Below, in pieces: positions 24,551 to 27,559 of a stretch of DNA of 27,559 bases; the stretch's first letter is position 1, and each line of letters starts with the position of its first letter. Below the pieces are notes generated by a model. It did no database searches. It was not told the DNA's origin and was given only the letters and a program-made list of their open reading frames with translations. This stretch comes from a virus. The stretch covers positions 1 through 27,559 of IMG/VR virus record IMGVR_UViG_3300017952_000076; one strand, written 5' to 3'. The position numbers were made by a program, and so were the translations under genes.

Positions 24551-25618
24551 TTACTCTCCATTAACAGATTCTACTTCTTTTTCCTCTTCGGCTTCATCTG
24601 CAATAGCGGGTTTATCAGCAAGGTCTTTCATAACCATGTCTAATTTTTCGCCAGTCCAATTTTTTCTGTATTCTAAATGCACTTCGCCGTTGAGGTCAGT
24701 GTATTTAAGTCTATTTCCATCTTTCTTGATTAATCCTTTCGCTTCGAAAAGATCAACTAGTCCACTGTATGGATCCATGCCAGTTTCATATGGAATTTTA
24801 ACTTGAACTGCTTCAAATGGTTTTGCGTAACGTGTTTTCATAACCTTACAGGCTGCACGAATACCACGCACATCAGTTACCTTGTTACCATCTTCATCTT
24901 CTTTTAGTTTTAATTTACGCATTGCAACAACAATTGAAGATGCATAGATAAATCCTTGACCACCTGAAATCTTATCATCTGGATCAAACATATCCTGTGA
25001 TGCGTATGTGTGATTGGTTGCTACCAATCCAACATTATAACTACCAAACATATTGACACAGTTTCTTACAAGTGCTGTTAGTGCCTTGGGTTTTCTACCC
25101 ATGTCACCTTTCAAATCACCCTTACCAAACTGGTCAACGTCTGTGGGTGTTAATAACATACCCAACGAATCGATGACAAATAATACCTTAGGACGATCTT
25201 CTTCAGCCATGTCCCTGTATTCTTTCATGAATTCTGATACCGTTTTCGCAACATCGTCAATCATGCTCATGTTTAGTTTAAGTAATTTTTCTTCACTCGT
25301 ATCAACGTCCAATGCATGTAGCCATGCTTCGTCAAGTGCGTTCTCCGAGTCAACAAGGACTACAAAAATGCCTTGTTCCTGTGCTGCTTTCACAATGTTA
25401 CCTGCTGCAATATACGATTTACCCGCACCAGATTCACCTGCTAATACAGTTACTTTTCCTAGTGGAACACCCTTATGGAAGTCGCCGCTGATCAAATAGT
25501 TTAGAGCATAGTTTCCTGTTGAAATCCAATCAGTAGGATCATTAAATCCAATACCTAGTCCGTCAATGCTCTTTGTCAGACTCTTTCTAAATTTAGTTAC
25601 GTCAAATGCTTTTGCCAT
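24551..25618 (-). CDS. uvsX: UvsX recombinase (RecA/Rad51 family)
   Basis: A 355-aa RecA-fold recombinase. It drives strand invasion in T4-type recombination-dependent replication. Walker A GESGAGKS (61-68), Walker B VLFVIDSLG (145-153), a SGGQGFIYASSIVV segment in the core, and an acidic C-terminal tail (ADEAEEEKEVES). Length is close to T4 UvsX (391 aa) minus the extended tail. AAGGA precedes the ATG at 25618 by four bases. It follows gp32 with an 85-base spacer that can form a hairpin. Confidence 0.95.
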   Translation of the reverse strand: MAKAFDVTKFRKSLTKSIDGLGIGFNDPTDWISTGNYALNYLISGDFHKGVPLGKVTVLAGESGAGKSYIAAGNIVKAAQEQGIFVVLVDSENALDEAWLHALDVDTSEEKLLKLNMSMIDDVAKTVSEFMKEYRDMAEEDRPKVLFVIDSLGMLLTPTDVDQFGKGDLKGDMGRKPKALTALVRNCVNMFGSYNVGLVATNHTYASQDMFDPDDKISGGQGFIYASSIVVAMRKLKLKEDEDGNKVTDVRGIRAACKVMKTRYAKPFEAVQVKIPYETGMDPYSGLVDLFEAKGLIKKDGNRLKYTDLNGEVHLEYRKNWTGEKLDMVMKDLADKPAIADEAEEEKEVESVNGE

Positions 25619-25703: not shown

Positions 25704-26690
25704 TTACTGCTGTTGTCTGTTACGGATCATTGCAAGAATGTCCTGAGCTCTGTTTGCACTATCGGAACTTTCCGCCGGTGCTTCAGTTGCTGCTGGTGCC
25801 GCTTCAGTTGTTGCAGTTTCAGTTACTGGAGCCGCTGGTGCCGCAGTCGCTGGTGCCGCAGTTGATGTAGATTTGTTAGGATCACCCGTAGCCTGGCCCA
25901 TGCCTGCTGGCTTAAAGTATTGACCCCACTTGTCCATATCATATGCCTCGCCATCAACAGATGCTTCGAACATTTCTTTCATTACCTGTAGTTCAACTTC
26001 AGTTGGTTTCTTAGGTAGGAAGTCGTTTAGATTAAACAGTCCGTGAGTATCAATTGCTGCTTTTTCCTCATCAGTTAAAGCACGTTCTCTACGTGACCAC
26101 TGTGAAGTTGAATAGTCAGCATATCCACCTTTGGATGTTTTCTTAATACGGAAATCAACACCCTTCATATAGTCTGTTGGCAATTCTTCCAATTCAGGAT
26201 CCATTAATGCACCCTTAATGATTTGGAAAATTTGTGGACCAATGATAAAGCGTCTAATTGGATTTTCTGGTTTAGAATCTTCATTTAGAGGATCATCTGA
26301 AACGAAACCTTGGAAGATGTATGAACGCTTCTTCCAATACTTACGACCCATGTCTTCTAATGATTTATCTTTGAACCAAGGACGAACTTCGGAAAGAATT
26401 GGACACGCTGTTCCGTCATTATACATTTCCACACATGGAACTTGAACAATTACGTTACGGTTGTCTGATTCGCCTTTAATACCTGCGAAAGGTAATTTGA
26501 TCATCGCACGTTCTACCCAAAAGAATGTGTTGTCAGTGTTACCGTCTGGTAAGAATCTTACCACGGCTTCCTTGCCTTCTTGCATATTCCAATGTGGGTA
26601 AATTGCGTTGTCTCCGCCACCAGTAGAATTACCAGTTGAGCGATTTTGCTGTTCCGCTAGTTTTGCGCGGATTTCTGCTAATGATGCCAT
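25704..26690 (-). CDS. 32: gp32 single-stranded DNA-binding protein
   Basis: A 328-aa protein of the gp32 type seen in marine T4-like phages. It coats ssDNA during replication, repair and recombination. N-terminal basic segment LAEIRAKLAEQQNRS, a core with VPCVEMYNDGTACPIL (84-99), EVRPWFKDKSLEDMGRKYW and RRFIIGPQIFQII, then a long Ala/Pro/Thr/Glu low-complexity linker (about 270-312) and a C-terminal ANRAQDILAMIRNRQQQ helix. Only two Cys (86 and 96, spaced as T4 C77/C87) of the T4 zinc set are kept. AAAGGAGG lies seven bases upstream; a consensus promoter precedes it. Confidence 0.93.
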   Translation of the reverse strand: MASLAEIRAKLAEQQNRSTGNSTGGGDNAIYPHWNMQEGKEAVVRFLPDGNTDNTFFWVERAMIKLPFAGIKGESDNRNVIVQVPCVEMYNDGTACPILSEVRPWFKDKSLEDMGRKYWKKRSYIFQGFVSDDPLNEDSKPENPIRRFIIGPQIFQIIKGALMDPELEELPTDYMKGVDFRIKKTSKGGYADYSTSQWSRRERALTDEEKAAIDTHGLFNLNDFLPKKPTEVELQVMKEMFEASVDGEAYDMDKWGQYFKPAGMGQATGDPNKSTSTAAPATAAPAAPVTETATTEAAPAATEAPAESSDSANRAQDILAMIRNRQQQ

Positions 26691-26708
26691 TTTGTAGCCT
26701 CCTTTGTT

Positions 26709-26740
26709 TGCCTAATAAAAAAATGTCATTTATGCCTAAT
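26709..26740. repeat. Direct repeat in the gp32 leader
   Basis: TGCCTAAT occurs at 26709-26716 and again at 26733-26740 (24 bases apart), i.e. ATTAGGCA twice in the gp32 mRNA leader. The leader is A-rich with little pairing. T4 gp32 represses its own translation by binding an unstructured leader, so this is a candidate operator; that is inference. Confidence 0.4.
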
Positions 26741-26751
26741 GCATACGTACT

Positions 26752-26780
26752 ATTATATGCAACTTTATTTATCTTGTCAA
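26752..26780 (-). promoter_or_regulatory. Perfect sigma70 consensus promoter for gp32-uvsX
   Basis: Minus strand TTGACA (26775-26780), 17-base spacer, TATAAT (26752-26757): complete consensus at ideal spacing. Expected start about 26745, giving a ~55-base leader before the gp32 ATG. It lies directly downstream of a terminator, so gp32-uvsX-uvsY form an insulated early unit. Confidence 0.85.
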
Positions 26781-26814
26781 TAGGAATTTTAACTAAAAGT
26801 GAATTTGTTTTACC

Positions 26815-26848
26815 AAAAAAAAAAAAAGGATCCGAAGATCCTTTCTTT
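26815..26848 (-). terminator. Intrinsic terminator with C(UUCG)G loop downstream of pqqA
   Basis: On the minus strand AAAGGATC-TTCG-GATCCTTT forms an 8-bp hairpin with the very stable C(UUCG)G tetraloop, followed by a run of 13 T (26815-26827 on the plus strand as A). It ends the pqqA transcript just upstream of the gp32 promoter. On the plus strand the tail TTTCTTT is weaker. Confidence 0.88.
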
Positions 26849-26902
26849 ATTAACAGTCCAATGTTTCTAACAATCTGTGTATATCTACTTCTACTTCTTT
26901 AT

Positions 26903-26974
26903 CTATCGGTTGGCTACATACATCGTTACTTCGAAGCCAAATCTCATTTCTGTTGCTATTGGTTTTGTCCACAT
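26903..26974 (-). CDS. pqqA: PqqA-like PQQ precursor peptide
   Basis: A 23-codon gene (ATG 26974, stop TAG 26903-26905) for a peptide starting MWTKP and continuing E9-M-R-F-G-F-E15-V-T-M-Y19, ending V-A-N-R. This is the PqqA pattern: M-W-x-K-P at the start, R-x-G-x-E-V-T-x-Y in the middle, N-R at the end, and the Glu/Tyr pair separated by three residues that PqqE cross-links to build pyrroloquinoline quinone. It is of the short beta/gammaproteobacterial type. AAGGA lies seven bases before the ATG. No pqqB-E genes are visible, so host enzymes (PqqD/PqqE and others) would have to process it. The gene is bracketed by two minus-strand terminators. The likely effect is to raise PQQ supply for host dehydrogenases (inferred). 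Confidence 0.9.
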
Positions 26975-26995
26975 AATGTTTTCCTTTATAAAGTG

Positions 26996-27031
26996 AAAAA
27001 AAATAGTGTAGCAGTTTCCTACTACACTATT
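26996..27031 (-). terminator. Intrinsic terminator upstream of pqqA
   Basis: Minus strand AATAGTGTAG (from 27031-27022) pairs with CTACACTATT (27011-27002), a 10-bp stem that can continue past one mismatch with two more pairs around a four-base loop. It is followed by eight T (26996-27003 as A on the plus strand). It closes the transcript of the gene at 27072 and lies 22 bases before the pqqA ATG. Confidence 0.85.
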
Positions 27032-27071
27032 ATTTAAACATCTTTACGTAAAAAATCAATACGTAAAATCA

Positions 27072-27559
27072 TTAAAACATACTAAGTTGTTTAATTCTTT
27101 CAAGTTCTTCTAAGTCTTCTGCGCCTTGTTCTTGTGCAGGAGCCATTCTTTCTACCATCTTACGTGCAACTTGCTCAGCCTGTTCACCAAACTTTTTGCC
27201 TACCATAGTAGCAACACCTTCTGGTCCTTTTGGAAAAGTTCCTGTGTTCTTATCATAAAAAGATTTAATAAATTCTGCTAAACCTTCTAGTGTATGTTCT
27301 TCACCATCTGAAGTTTTAAACTTAGTGCCTTTTTTAGCGCCTTGTGCTTTTAGGTCTTGAACTTTTTTGCTAAATTCATTGCCTTCAGTTTCTTGGCTTT
27401 CCATATCCATAATATCGCCTGCTATATCACCGTGAAACTCTTGTCTATCAATTTCATGTCTCACTTTATCAAAGCCATCTGTTTTAATTTTTTCAATGTA
27501 GTCTTGATAAATTTTGTCTGCATAAGATTCGTCTGGCTCATTGCTACCTGTGATTTCAT
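27072..27559 (-). CDS. Unrecognised protein, 5' end outside window
   Basis: The frame stays open to the window edge, so this is the C-terminal 161 residues of a longer protein; a GTG at 27464 is merely internal. The visible part is hydrophilic and helical: SYADKIYQDYIEKIKTDGF, HGDIAGDIMDMESQ, a glycine-lysine-rich AQGAKKGTKF, GEEHTLEGLAEFIKSFYD and EDLEELERIKQLSMF at the end. No signal peptide or membrane segment and no family recognised. Endings of the ELxRIKxL kind occur in hypothetical T4-like cyanophage proteins. It is followed by a strong terminator. Confidence 0.75.
   Translation of the reverse strand, partial: EITGSNEPDESYADKIYQDYIEKIKTDGFDKVRHEIDRQEFHGDIAGDIMDMESQETEGNEFSKKVQDLKAQGAKKGTKFKTSDGEEHTLEGLAEFIKSFYDKNTGTFPKGPEGVATMVGKKFGEQAEQVARKMVERMAPAQEQGAEDLEELERIKQLSMF

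What the first reader, a model, noticed from the sequence alone, without database searches (positions are those of the whole stretch)
26903..26974. Phage-encoded PqqA: a 23-residue PQQ precursor peptide gene
A tiny open frame missed by length cut-offs encodes M-W-T-K-P ... R-F-G-F-E-V-T-M-Y ... A-N-R, which holds every conserved PqqA position including the Glu/Tyr pair that PqqE cross-links. It has its own ribosome-binding site. Known biology: PqqA is the ribosomal substrate of PqqD/PqqE; PQQ is the cofactor of methanol (MxaF/XoxF) and other dehydrogenases. Inference: the phage supplies extra precursor to keep PQQ-dependent oxidation running during infection, and its host makes PQQ, possibly a marine methylotroph such as OM43. 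A lone substrate peptide as an auxiliary metabolic gene is unusual.
Basis: partly seen in the sequence, partly recalled or inferred. Interest (0 to 1): 0.95.

Follow-up and report, generated by a model that had tools for sequence, protein, structure and literature searches.

The report
Phage-borne PQQ precursor peptide gene
Viruses of methanol-eating bacteria carry a 23-residue gene, usually missed by annotation, for the raw material of their host's methanol-oxidation cofactor (PQQ), often together with host-like control elements, which suggests that they keep that cofactor supplied during infection.

Summary
Confirmed: window 26974..26903 (minus strand) encodes [23 protein letters not shown], a PqqA over both curated cut-offs. 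It is a phage gene: tblastn found it in nine methylophage isolate records (four are Melnitz variants), where it is unannotated or under a 'hypothetical protein', and a capped IMG/VR scan gave 120 contigs. PqqE and PQQ dehydrogenase are absent over the cut-off from 38 of 38 longer contigs tested: only the consumable peptide is carried. Viral pqqA is already in print (Lake Baikal 2020; reservoir sediments 2026), so this is a new variant, not a first. New here: (1) a promoter-like box shared with host pqqA genes (11 of 12 host sites precede pqqA), with a copy in the window at 27075-27058; (2) a second small frame overlapping pqqA, coding-conserved at its C-terminus, in the window; (3) in relatives, not in the window, a covarying RNA leader before pqqA, also before pqqA in OM43-size genomes (23 of 187 Methylophilaceae), without an Rfam match. 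Its stem competes with a helix over the pqqA start codon or beside the ribosome-binding site: a candidate riboswitch. Expression, PqqE processing and any ligand are untested.

The parts
26903..26974 (-). phage pqqA, 23 codons plus stop
26982..26987 (-). ribosome-binding site AAAGGA, 7 nt before the ATG
   Evidence: read
27058..27075 (-). 'pqqA box' TTAATGATTTTACGTATT, of the type shared with phage and Methylophilaceae pqqA leaders; overlaps the stop codon of the upstream ORF
   Evidence: alone not significant in the window (3 matches at up to 2 mismatches against 1.95 expected), its weight rests on position and relatives
27032..27038 (-). -10-like TTTAAAT, 37 nt after the start of the box; putative pqqA promoter
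   Evidence: read; TATAAT- or TTTAAATA-like sequences follow the box in many phage leaders; inference
27002..27031 (-). 13-bp hairpin followed by a T run, between box and RBS; terminator of the upstream gene and/or 5' end of the pqqA mRNA
26850..26972 (-). ORF2: overlapping frame (+2 relative to pqqA) from the GTG inside ATGTGG, 40 aa
   Evidence: relatives
26853..26885 (-). conserved C-terminal tail of ORF2 (D-I-H-R-L-L-E-T-L-D-C)
   Evidence: relatives
26821..26848 (-). terminator-like hairpin plus T run that ends the unit
25704..26690 (-). gp32-type ssDNA-binding protein, next gene downstream (context)
24551..25618 (-). UvsX recombinase (context)
27072..27557 (-). upstream ORF, no family found, runs off the window

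Best explanation
The gene is a phage copy of the host's pqqA. The phage makes only the ribosomal precursor; the host's own PqqD/PqqE and later enzymes turn it into PQQ. PqqA is consumed one peptide per PQQ while the enzymes are catalytic, so once the phage stops host transcription the peptide is the part that runs out. Supplying it keeps PQQ-dependent methanol oxidation (MxaF/XoxF) running while virions are made. In the window the gene looks like its own unit: a host-type pqqA promoter box, an RBS and a terminator. Some relatives add an RNA leader, shared with OM43, that appears to gate translation. Shown here: family membership, purifying selection, occurrence without PqqE, host-type control elements, presence in isolate phages. 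Inferred: expression, processing by the host, effect on PQQ and on phage yield.
For: PqqA over both curated cut-offs. tblastn against 50,697 phage records gives 14 matches; the ten with E<1e-4 are nine methylophage records (Venkman, P19250A, MEP301, MEP401, MEP402, four Melnitz variants) and one Caudoviricetes record. All 124 phage loci compared encode 23-25 residues, generally behind a GGA-type RBS (the loci were found by a PqqA pattern or match). Purifying selection. One pqqA per record in 41 of 41. PqqE over the cut-off in 0 of 38 and PQQ alcohol dehydrogenase in 0 of 38 contigs; no pqq enzyme or PQQ dehydrogenase among the 37 longer window ORFs scanned with Pfam. Hosts show the same logic: 12 genomes chosen because they have pqqA carry 1-12 copies, and PMC4109929 (passages) reports 3-12 pqqA copies beside, with one exception, single copies of the other pqq genes. 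The promoter box is shared with the host.
Against: No expression, PQQ measurement or processing data here. Stoichiometric consumption and the PqqD/PqqE chemistry are recalled knowledge. Each phage carries one copy against a host's 1-12, so the gain depends on phage dosage and expression, both unmeasured. Of the methylophage papers searched for the term, none mentions pqqA. PMC13188868 lists viral pqqE and pqqD too, so not every virus carries only the precursor gene. Only PqqE and the dehydrogenase were sought on the 38 contigs, not PqqB, C or D.
Confidence: 0.75

Rival explanations
1. The phage peptide is a decoy: it occupies PqqD/PqqE without good turnover and lowers PQQ, starving the host or blocking rivals.
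For: Positions 6-8 and 20-23 often differ from host copies: only three distinct phage peptides are identical, from the Trp on, to one of the host sequences fetched (the host set was found with a restrictive pattern).
Against: The reactive Glu/Tyr and the core are kept, Tyr19 in 109 of 109 without being demanded; 33 phage loci encode, from the Trp on, the commonest WTKP-type host peptide; a host-type promoter box fits supply better than poisoning.
Confidence: 0.08
2. pqqA is a passenger of a small cassette whose useful product is ORF2 (the R-L-L-E-T-x-D-C peptide) or the RNA leader.
For: ORF2's tail is as strongly conserved as pqqA (pN/pS 0.20); no confident match of the RNA leader was seen before another gene (two weak partial matches, E 1.5 and 6.4, lie elsewhere).
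Against: Most of the phage pqqA loci compared have neither: tail in 8 of 124, RNA leader in 13 of 124. pqqA is the constant part and is itself under purifying selection.
Confidence: 0.07
3. Host DNA swept into viral contigs or prophage edges.
For: Two 'Acinetobacter phage' records matched; the one opened is a chromosomal contig with pqqB and pqqC.
Against: Isolate genomes carry it; in the window it lies between an ORF and gp32, a place kept in L021, L023, L082 and L091; PqqE is absent from the 38 contigs tested.
Confidence: 0.02
4. The gene is a neutral, frequently exchanged hitch-hiker; PQQ precursor is not limiting.
For: The pqqA segment recombines: window and L023 are 96-100% identical across gp32/uvsX but 62-85% around pqqA.
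Against: pN/pS 0.18 across divergent phages and occurrence in different phage types.
Confidence: 0.08

Closest known systems
Bacterial PqqA (PF08042, TIGR02107), especially the multi-copy pqqA of Methylophilaceae
   Same: Core sequence, Glu15/Tyr19, length, RBS, promoter box; in relatives also the RNA leader of OM43 pqqA
   Different: Phage-borne, one copy per record (41 of 41), no PqqE on the 38 contigs tested
Viral PqqA of Lake Baikal population VP_266 (PMC7678222, section 9 read)
   Same: PqqA in a T4-type virus of a predicted Methylophilaceae host; same proposed role
   Different: There it accompanies a viral methanol dehydrogenase; here none was found. The paper says P19250A carries none of these AMGs, but P19250A has an unannotated pqqA
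Viral pqqA, pqqE and pqqD in reservoir sediments (PMC13188868, passages)
   Same: Virus-encoded pqqA, treated as an auxiliary gene
   Different: Framed as phosphate solubilisation; passages do not describe a lone-peptide pattern, promoter box, leader or overlapping ORF
Cyanophage psbA-type auxiliary metabolic genes (recalled)
   Different: psbA replaces a turned-over protein subunit; pqqA supplies a consumed substrate
c-di-GMP riboswitch before a pqqA in Methylophaga GP59 (PMC12530212, passages)
   Same: A riboswitch upstream of pqqA
   Different: The OM43/phage leader matches no Rfam family over the gathering score in the 12 leader-bearing loci scanned

Membership tests
PqqA | Profile score over the curated cut-off | tested here: met
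   PF08042 42.1 vs 21.1; TIGR02107 41.7 vs 20
PqqA | Glu and Tyr of the cross-link, E-x3-Y | tested here: met
   E15, Y19; Y19 in 109 of 109 phage sequences
PqqA | Short ribosomal peptide with its own RBS | tested here: met
   23 aa, AAAGGA; 23-25 aa in 124 loci
PqqA | Substrate of PqqD/PqqE, yields PQQ | not testable with these tools
   needs enzymes and mass spectrometry
Auxiliary metabolic gene | Phage-borne homologue of a host metabolic gene in a genuine phage genome | tested here: met
Auxiliary metabolic gene | Expressed during infection and changes host metabolism | not testable with these tools
   no transcriptomes
Riboswitch (leader of relatives, not of the window) | Conserved structure with compensatory changes | tested here: met
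   A2, 20 sequences: 98.6% of cells paired, 14 double-change cells vs 2.7 shuffled (0 of 500), but pairs with a double change 3 (80 of 500 shuffles reach it). A3, 29 sequences fitted to the model: 10 of 11 pairs with double changes, 49 cells vs 10.1, 0 of 500 for both
Riboswitch (leader of relatives, not of the window) | Aptamer strand shared with a helix that hides RBS or start codon | tested here: inconclusive
   Predicted: start codon in 20 of 20 distinct phage leaders though their RBS is not predicted hidden (0.43 unpaired vs 0.34 shuffled); RBS side in host leaders; mixed in divergent leaders
Riboswitch (leader of relatives, not of the window) | Binds a ligand | not testable with these tools
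   needs in-line probing
Known Rfam riboswitch classes | Rfam match over gathering score | tested here: not met
   (12 leader-bearing loci, no match at the leader); only sub-threshold matches

The most novel reading that the evidence does not exclude
The leader shared by OM43 pqqA and its phages is a new riboswitch class that tunes PQQ supply by sensing PQQ, a precursor or a C1/lanthanide signal. Phages import the control module (promoter box, riboswitch, precursor peptide, sometimes a second overlapping peptide) and re-wire its expression platform so that the aptamer stem competes with the pqqA start codon itself. The window's lineage has lost the switch and so would escape that control.
Probability: 0.4. 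Interest if true: 0.92.

Novelty: new variant of a known kind. Interest (0 to 1): 0.74.

Why it matters
It would make one consumable peptide, not an enzyme, a recurrent target of phage metabolic hijacking in an important group of marine and freshwater methanol oxidisers, and it shows how genes of about 23 codons escape viral annotation. The shared promoter box and RNA leader give direct, testable handles on how OM43 controls PQQ, and possibly a riboswitch dedicated to PQQ supply. Isolate phages with the gene (Venkman, Melnitz, MEP301, MEP401/402, P19250A) already exist with their hosts.

Tried and rejected
Considered and rejected: chance ORF; host contamination; a phage-encoded PQQ pathway or dehydrogenase (0 of 38 over the cut-off, the 38 being picked for length from about 150 pqqA contigs then in hand; G010 and G023 have weak radical-SAM matches below it; PqqB, C and D were not sought on contigs). 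A ribosomal frameshift joining PqqA to the ORF2 tail: the tail is in the +2 frame in 40 of 43 contigs and in the +1 frame in 3, and the 30 contigs without an ATG inside pqqA all keep the overlap open to the GTG, so independent starts fit better; not excluded. Melnitz-type kinship of the window phage: UvsX and gp32 are nearest, in the rows listed, to jumbo phages.

Led nowhere: a stricter box pattern over 187 host genomes hit 27 single sites (reversed control 8), none before pqqA; the host form does not fit it, and the host-form pattern did better. PHROGs gave no family for the peptide. The ORF2 tail pattern is in 0 of 150 Methylophilaceae genomes, and a 36-aa ORF2 found nothing convincing among phages (the two methylophage matches lie on pqqA, the third is weak). 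A TerL search meant to count methylophages without pqqA was uninformative: 1,943 records matched, 40 rows listed. Isolates named in the taxonomy (MEP431-434, Venkman EXVC038S, HIM624-A, phiMB624-A) were not tested. My note says 34 of 34 leaders precede pqqA; itself shows 32 of the 34 it examined, the other two ending too early; L248 and L258, not re-examined there, carry pqqA. A note gives the box control as 9; it is 8.

Full report
OBSERVATION. On the minus strand 26974..26903 reads [23 protein letters not shown]-stop; the plus strand does not. It scores 42.1 bits on PF08042 (cut-off 21.1) and 41.7 on TIGR02107 (cut-off 20) and is the only such match in the record, with none in 14 control genomes. 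AAAGGA stands 7 nt before the ATG. The gene lies between an ORF without family (27072-27557, running off the window) and gp32, bracketed by two terminator-like hairpins. Thirty-seven longer window ORFs scanned with Pfam show no pqq enzyme or PQQ dehydrogenase; the window is a fragment.

THE PHAGE. The window encodes UvsX, a UvsY-like mediator, a gp32-type protein and a UvsW-like helicase. In the rows listed, UvsX is nearest to jumbo phages such as Sinorhizobium phage Phosso (469 kb, 69%) and Agrobacterium phage Atu_ph07 (490 kb, 66.5%), and gp32 to Phosso (58%) and PA5oct-type phages (54%). Related contigs reach 132 kb. That the window comes from a jumbo phage is an inference; its genome size is not known.

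HOW WIDESPREAD. tblastn of the peptide against 50,697 phage records gave 14 matches: nine methylophage records (Venkman, P19250A, MEP301, MEP401, MEP402, four Melnitz variants) and one Caudoviricetes record at E<1e-4; two Acinetobacter-labelled contigs, the opened one chromosomal; and one Arthrobacter phage twice at E 8. At the site the records of Venkman, P19250A, MEP301, MEP401 and MEP402 have no feature; Melnitz EXVC044M and the Caudoviricetes record have an opposite-strand 'hypothetical protein' over it. Methylophages without pqqA were not counted. The 124 loci then in hand (window, three phage records, 120 contigs) all encode 23-25 residues. 109 distinct sequences have pN/pS 0.18, or 0.25 at codons not fixed by the pattern, with Tyr19 and Arg11 invariant. 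41 of 41 records tested have exactly one pqqA. Of 38 pqqA-bearing contigs of 15-133 kb, picked for length from about 150 in hand, none has PqqE or a PQQ alcohol dehydrogenase over the cut-off; contigs may be fragments, and PqqB, C and D were not sought.

HOST. Twelve genomes chosen through their pqqA carry 1-12 copies; one of them, G045, is not in the family list. PMC4109929 (passages) reports 3-12 pqqA copies beside, with one exception, single copies of the other pqq genes. 33 phage loci encode, from the Trp on, a peptide identical to a common host one. The control elements below point to the same family and, where the RNA leader is present, to OM43.

PROMOTER BOX. The relaxed motif [AT][TC][AC]ATG[AG]TTTT occurs in the 150-nt leaders of 39 of 114 non-redundant phage pqqA genes (letter-shuffled 0.4%) and 15 of 109 non-redundant host pqqA genes (0.2%). 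The host form TTCATGATTTTACKTAG over 80 host genomes gave 12 sites (reversed control 1), 11 of them 93-111 nt before a pqqA start. The window has TTAATGATTTTACGTATT at 27075-27058, with TTTAAAT 37 nt on; counted over the whole window this pattern is not rarer than chance (3 matches at up to 2 mismatches, 1.95 expected), so its weight rests on its place and on relatives. Also against it: a stricter phage-style pattern found 27 host sites (control 8), none before pqqA.

OVERLAPPING ORF2. After the window's pqqA, in another frame, a tail R-L-L-E-T-x-D-C is conserved. A pattern for the tail alone hit 33 viral contigs; 32 have pqqA overlapping or just before it, one (L265) does not. A second scan, which did ask for the end of pqqA but left the gap free, gave 43 contigs: 40 in frame +2, 3 in frame +1, none in frame with pqqA. 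In 31 the frame is open through pqqA to the GTG inside ATGTGG; the other 12 have an ATG inside pqqA (L297 is cut by the contig end); L300 has both. Many of the 31 also have an ATG after the pqqA stop, but not the window's type. Among the first 124 loci, frame +2 is open through pqqA in 6 of 8 with the tail and 2 of 116 without; related phages are not independent. Tail pN/pS is 0.20 in its frame against 0.87 and 1.03 shifted (16 distinct sequences, L297 dropped, some residues fixed by the pattern); the overlap itself is constrained only as pqqA. The window's copy ends one codon early (GAA to TAA against L091). Its function is unknown; I guess a small accessory peptide translated from the same mRNA.

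RNA LEADER IN RELATIVES. Four relatives share a leader of about 50 nt directly before pqqA. An element-only pattern hit 36 viral contigs; of 34 examined, 32 have pqqA next and two end too early; L248 and L258, the other two, carry pqqA too. On 20 sequences (A2) two helices have 98.6% of cells paired, 25-62% when slid, and 14 double-change cells against 2.7 in shuffles; two weaker measures (3 pairs with a double change, 9 further pair types) are reached by 80 and 136 of 500 shuffles. Model R1 then found it before host pqqA. With hosts and divergent phages added (29 sequences, A3, an alignment fitted to the model), 10 of 11 pairs show double changes. Model R2 hits 13 of the 124 first-scan loci, all 13 ending 23-30 nt before the ATG, 23 of 187 Methylophilaceae genomes, all of 0.7-1.4 Mb, and 2 of 300 genomes of the order, both already known. 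The 21 host loci that my expression could read have it before a tandem pqqA pair; two were not read. None of the 12 leader-bearing loci scanned has an Rfam match at the leader. The window has no match.

A SWITCH? In 20 of 20 distinct phage leaders the 3' strand of P1 pairs 6 of 6 with its partner and also 9-11 of 11 with the pqqA start region (slid controls 3.0-6.3); the two helices exclude each other, and the AUG is predicted 0.14 unpaired. The phage RBS, though, is not predicted hidden (0.43 unpaired against 0.34 with shuffled upstream sequence). In host leaders that strand pairs just before the RBS (15 of 15 leaders matched) and the RBS is predicted mostly paired (0.16 over 23 leaders against 0.34 shuffled, a level of 0.12 or less being reached by 15% of shuffles). 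Divergent phage leaders give mixed support. If P1 forms on ligand binding, translation would turn on; that is an inference from folding, and no ligand is known.

MECHANISM. Best reading: the phage supplies the one consumable part of PQQ synthesis from a host-type promoter, and the host's enzymes do the rest. Shown: gene identity, selection, occurrence without PqqE, control elements. Inferred: expression, processing, benefit. In other phages pqqA plus ORF2 lies behind the major head protein gene (L045, L124, L245, L250, L260), a place of high late expression (recalled). Window and L023 are 96-100% identical across gp32/uvsX but 62-85% around pqqA, and only L023 has the leader, so the cassette is exchanged between close relatives.

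NOVELTY. Viral pqqA is in print: PMC7678222 (section 9 read) in 2020, and PMC13188868 (passages), which lists virus-encoded pqqA, pqqE and pqqD in reservoir sediments. The second was opened only on re-checking, and I lowered interest slightly for it. PMC9602057 concerns a PQQ-dependent oxidoreductase, not pqqA (passage). Ten library searches listed no other paper that I recognised as reporting viral pqqA or a PQQ riboswitch; the library holds open-licence PMC papers only, some result lists were cut, and most listed papers were not opened. In the methylophage papers PMC10580990, PMC8163748, PMC8024684 and PMC9004378 (term searches of the main text) pqqA does not occur, and PQQ occurs only as a medium ingredient in the last.

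Noticed in passing
L340, L344-L357, L360-L362 (OM43-size genomes): Between the two tandem host pqqA copies lies a micro-ORF of 24-32 aa with a WxFHxWxCxCPxC-type end, printed in 18 of 21 loci. Unknown function.
   Followed up: no
window 696-23452: Many small transferase-type genes: 2OG-Fe(II) oxygenases (two over cut-off, one below), methyltransferases, nucleotidyl/cytidylyltransferase, a hexapeptide transferase, one family-8 glycosyltransferase, APS-kinase-like; many ORFs without a Pfam family. Possibly surface or virion glycan modification.
   Followed up: partly
window 26780-26752 (minus): Perfect sigma-70 promoter TTGACA-17-TATAAT just before gp32.
   Followed up: no
window about 26690-26836 against L023: Recombination edge: 96-100% identity in gp32/uvsX falls to 62-85% over the pqqA segment.
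   Followed up: partly
L045, L124, L245, L250, L260: pqqA plus ORF2 lies behind the major head protein gene (PHROGs phrog_138 or phrog_371); in L124 about 0.6 kb behind.
   Followed up: partly
KX815270.1 28085-28153: P19250A has an unannotated pqqA although PMC7678222 states that it lacks these AMGs.
   Followed up: yes
CAKLQF020000010.1 106710-109775 (L403): Record labelled 'Acinetobacter phage' carries polyphosphate kinase, pqqB and pqqC and looks chromosomal.
   Followed up: yes
L049:1445-1510: ROSE_3 RNA thermometer match in a pqqA-bearing viral contig (54.3 bits, gathering 43).
   Followed up: no
records of L245 (G023) and L038 (G010): Radical-SAM-like genes below the PqqE cut-off on two pqqA-bearing phage contigs.
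   Followed up: no
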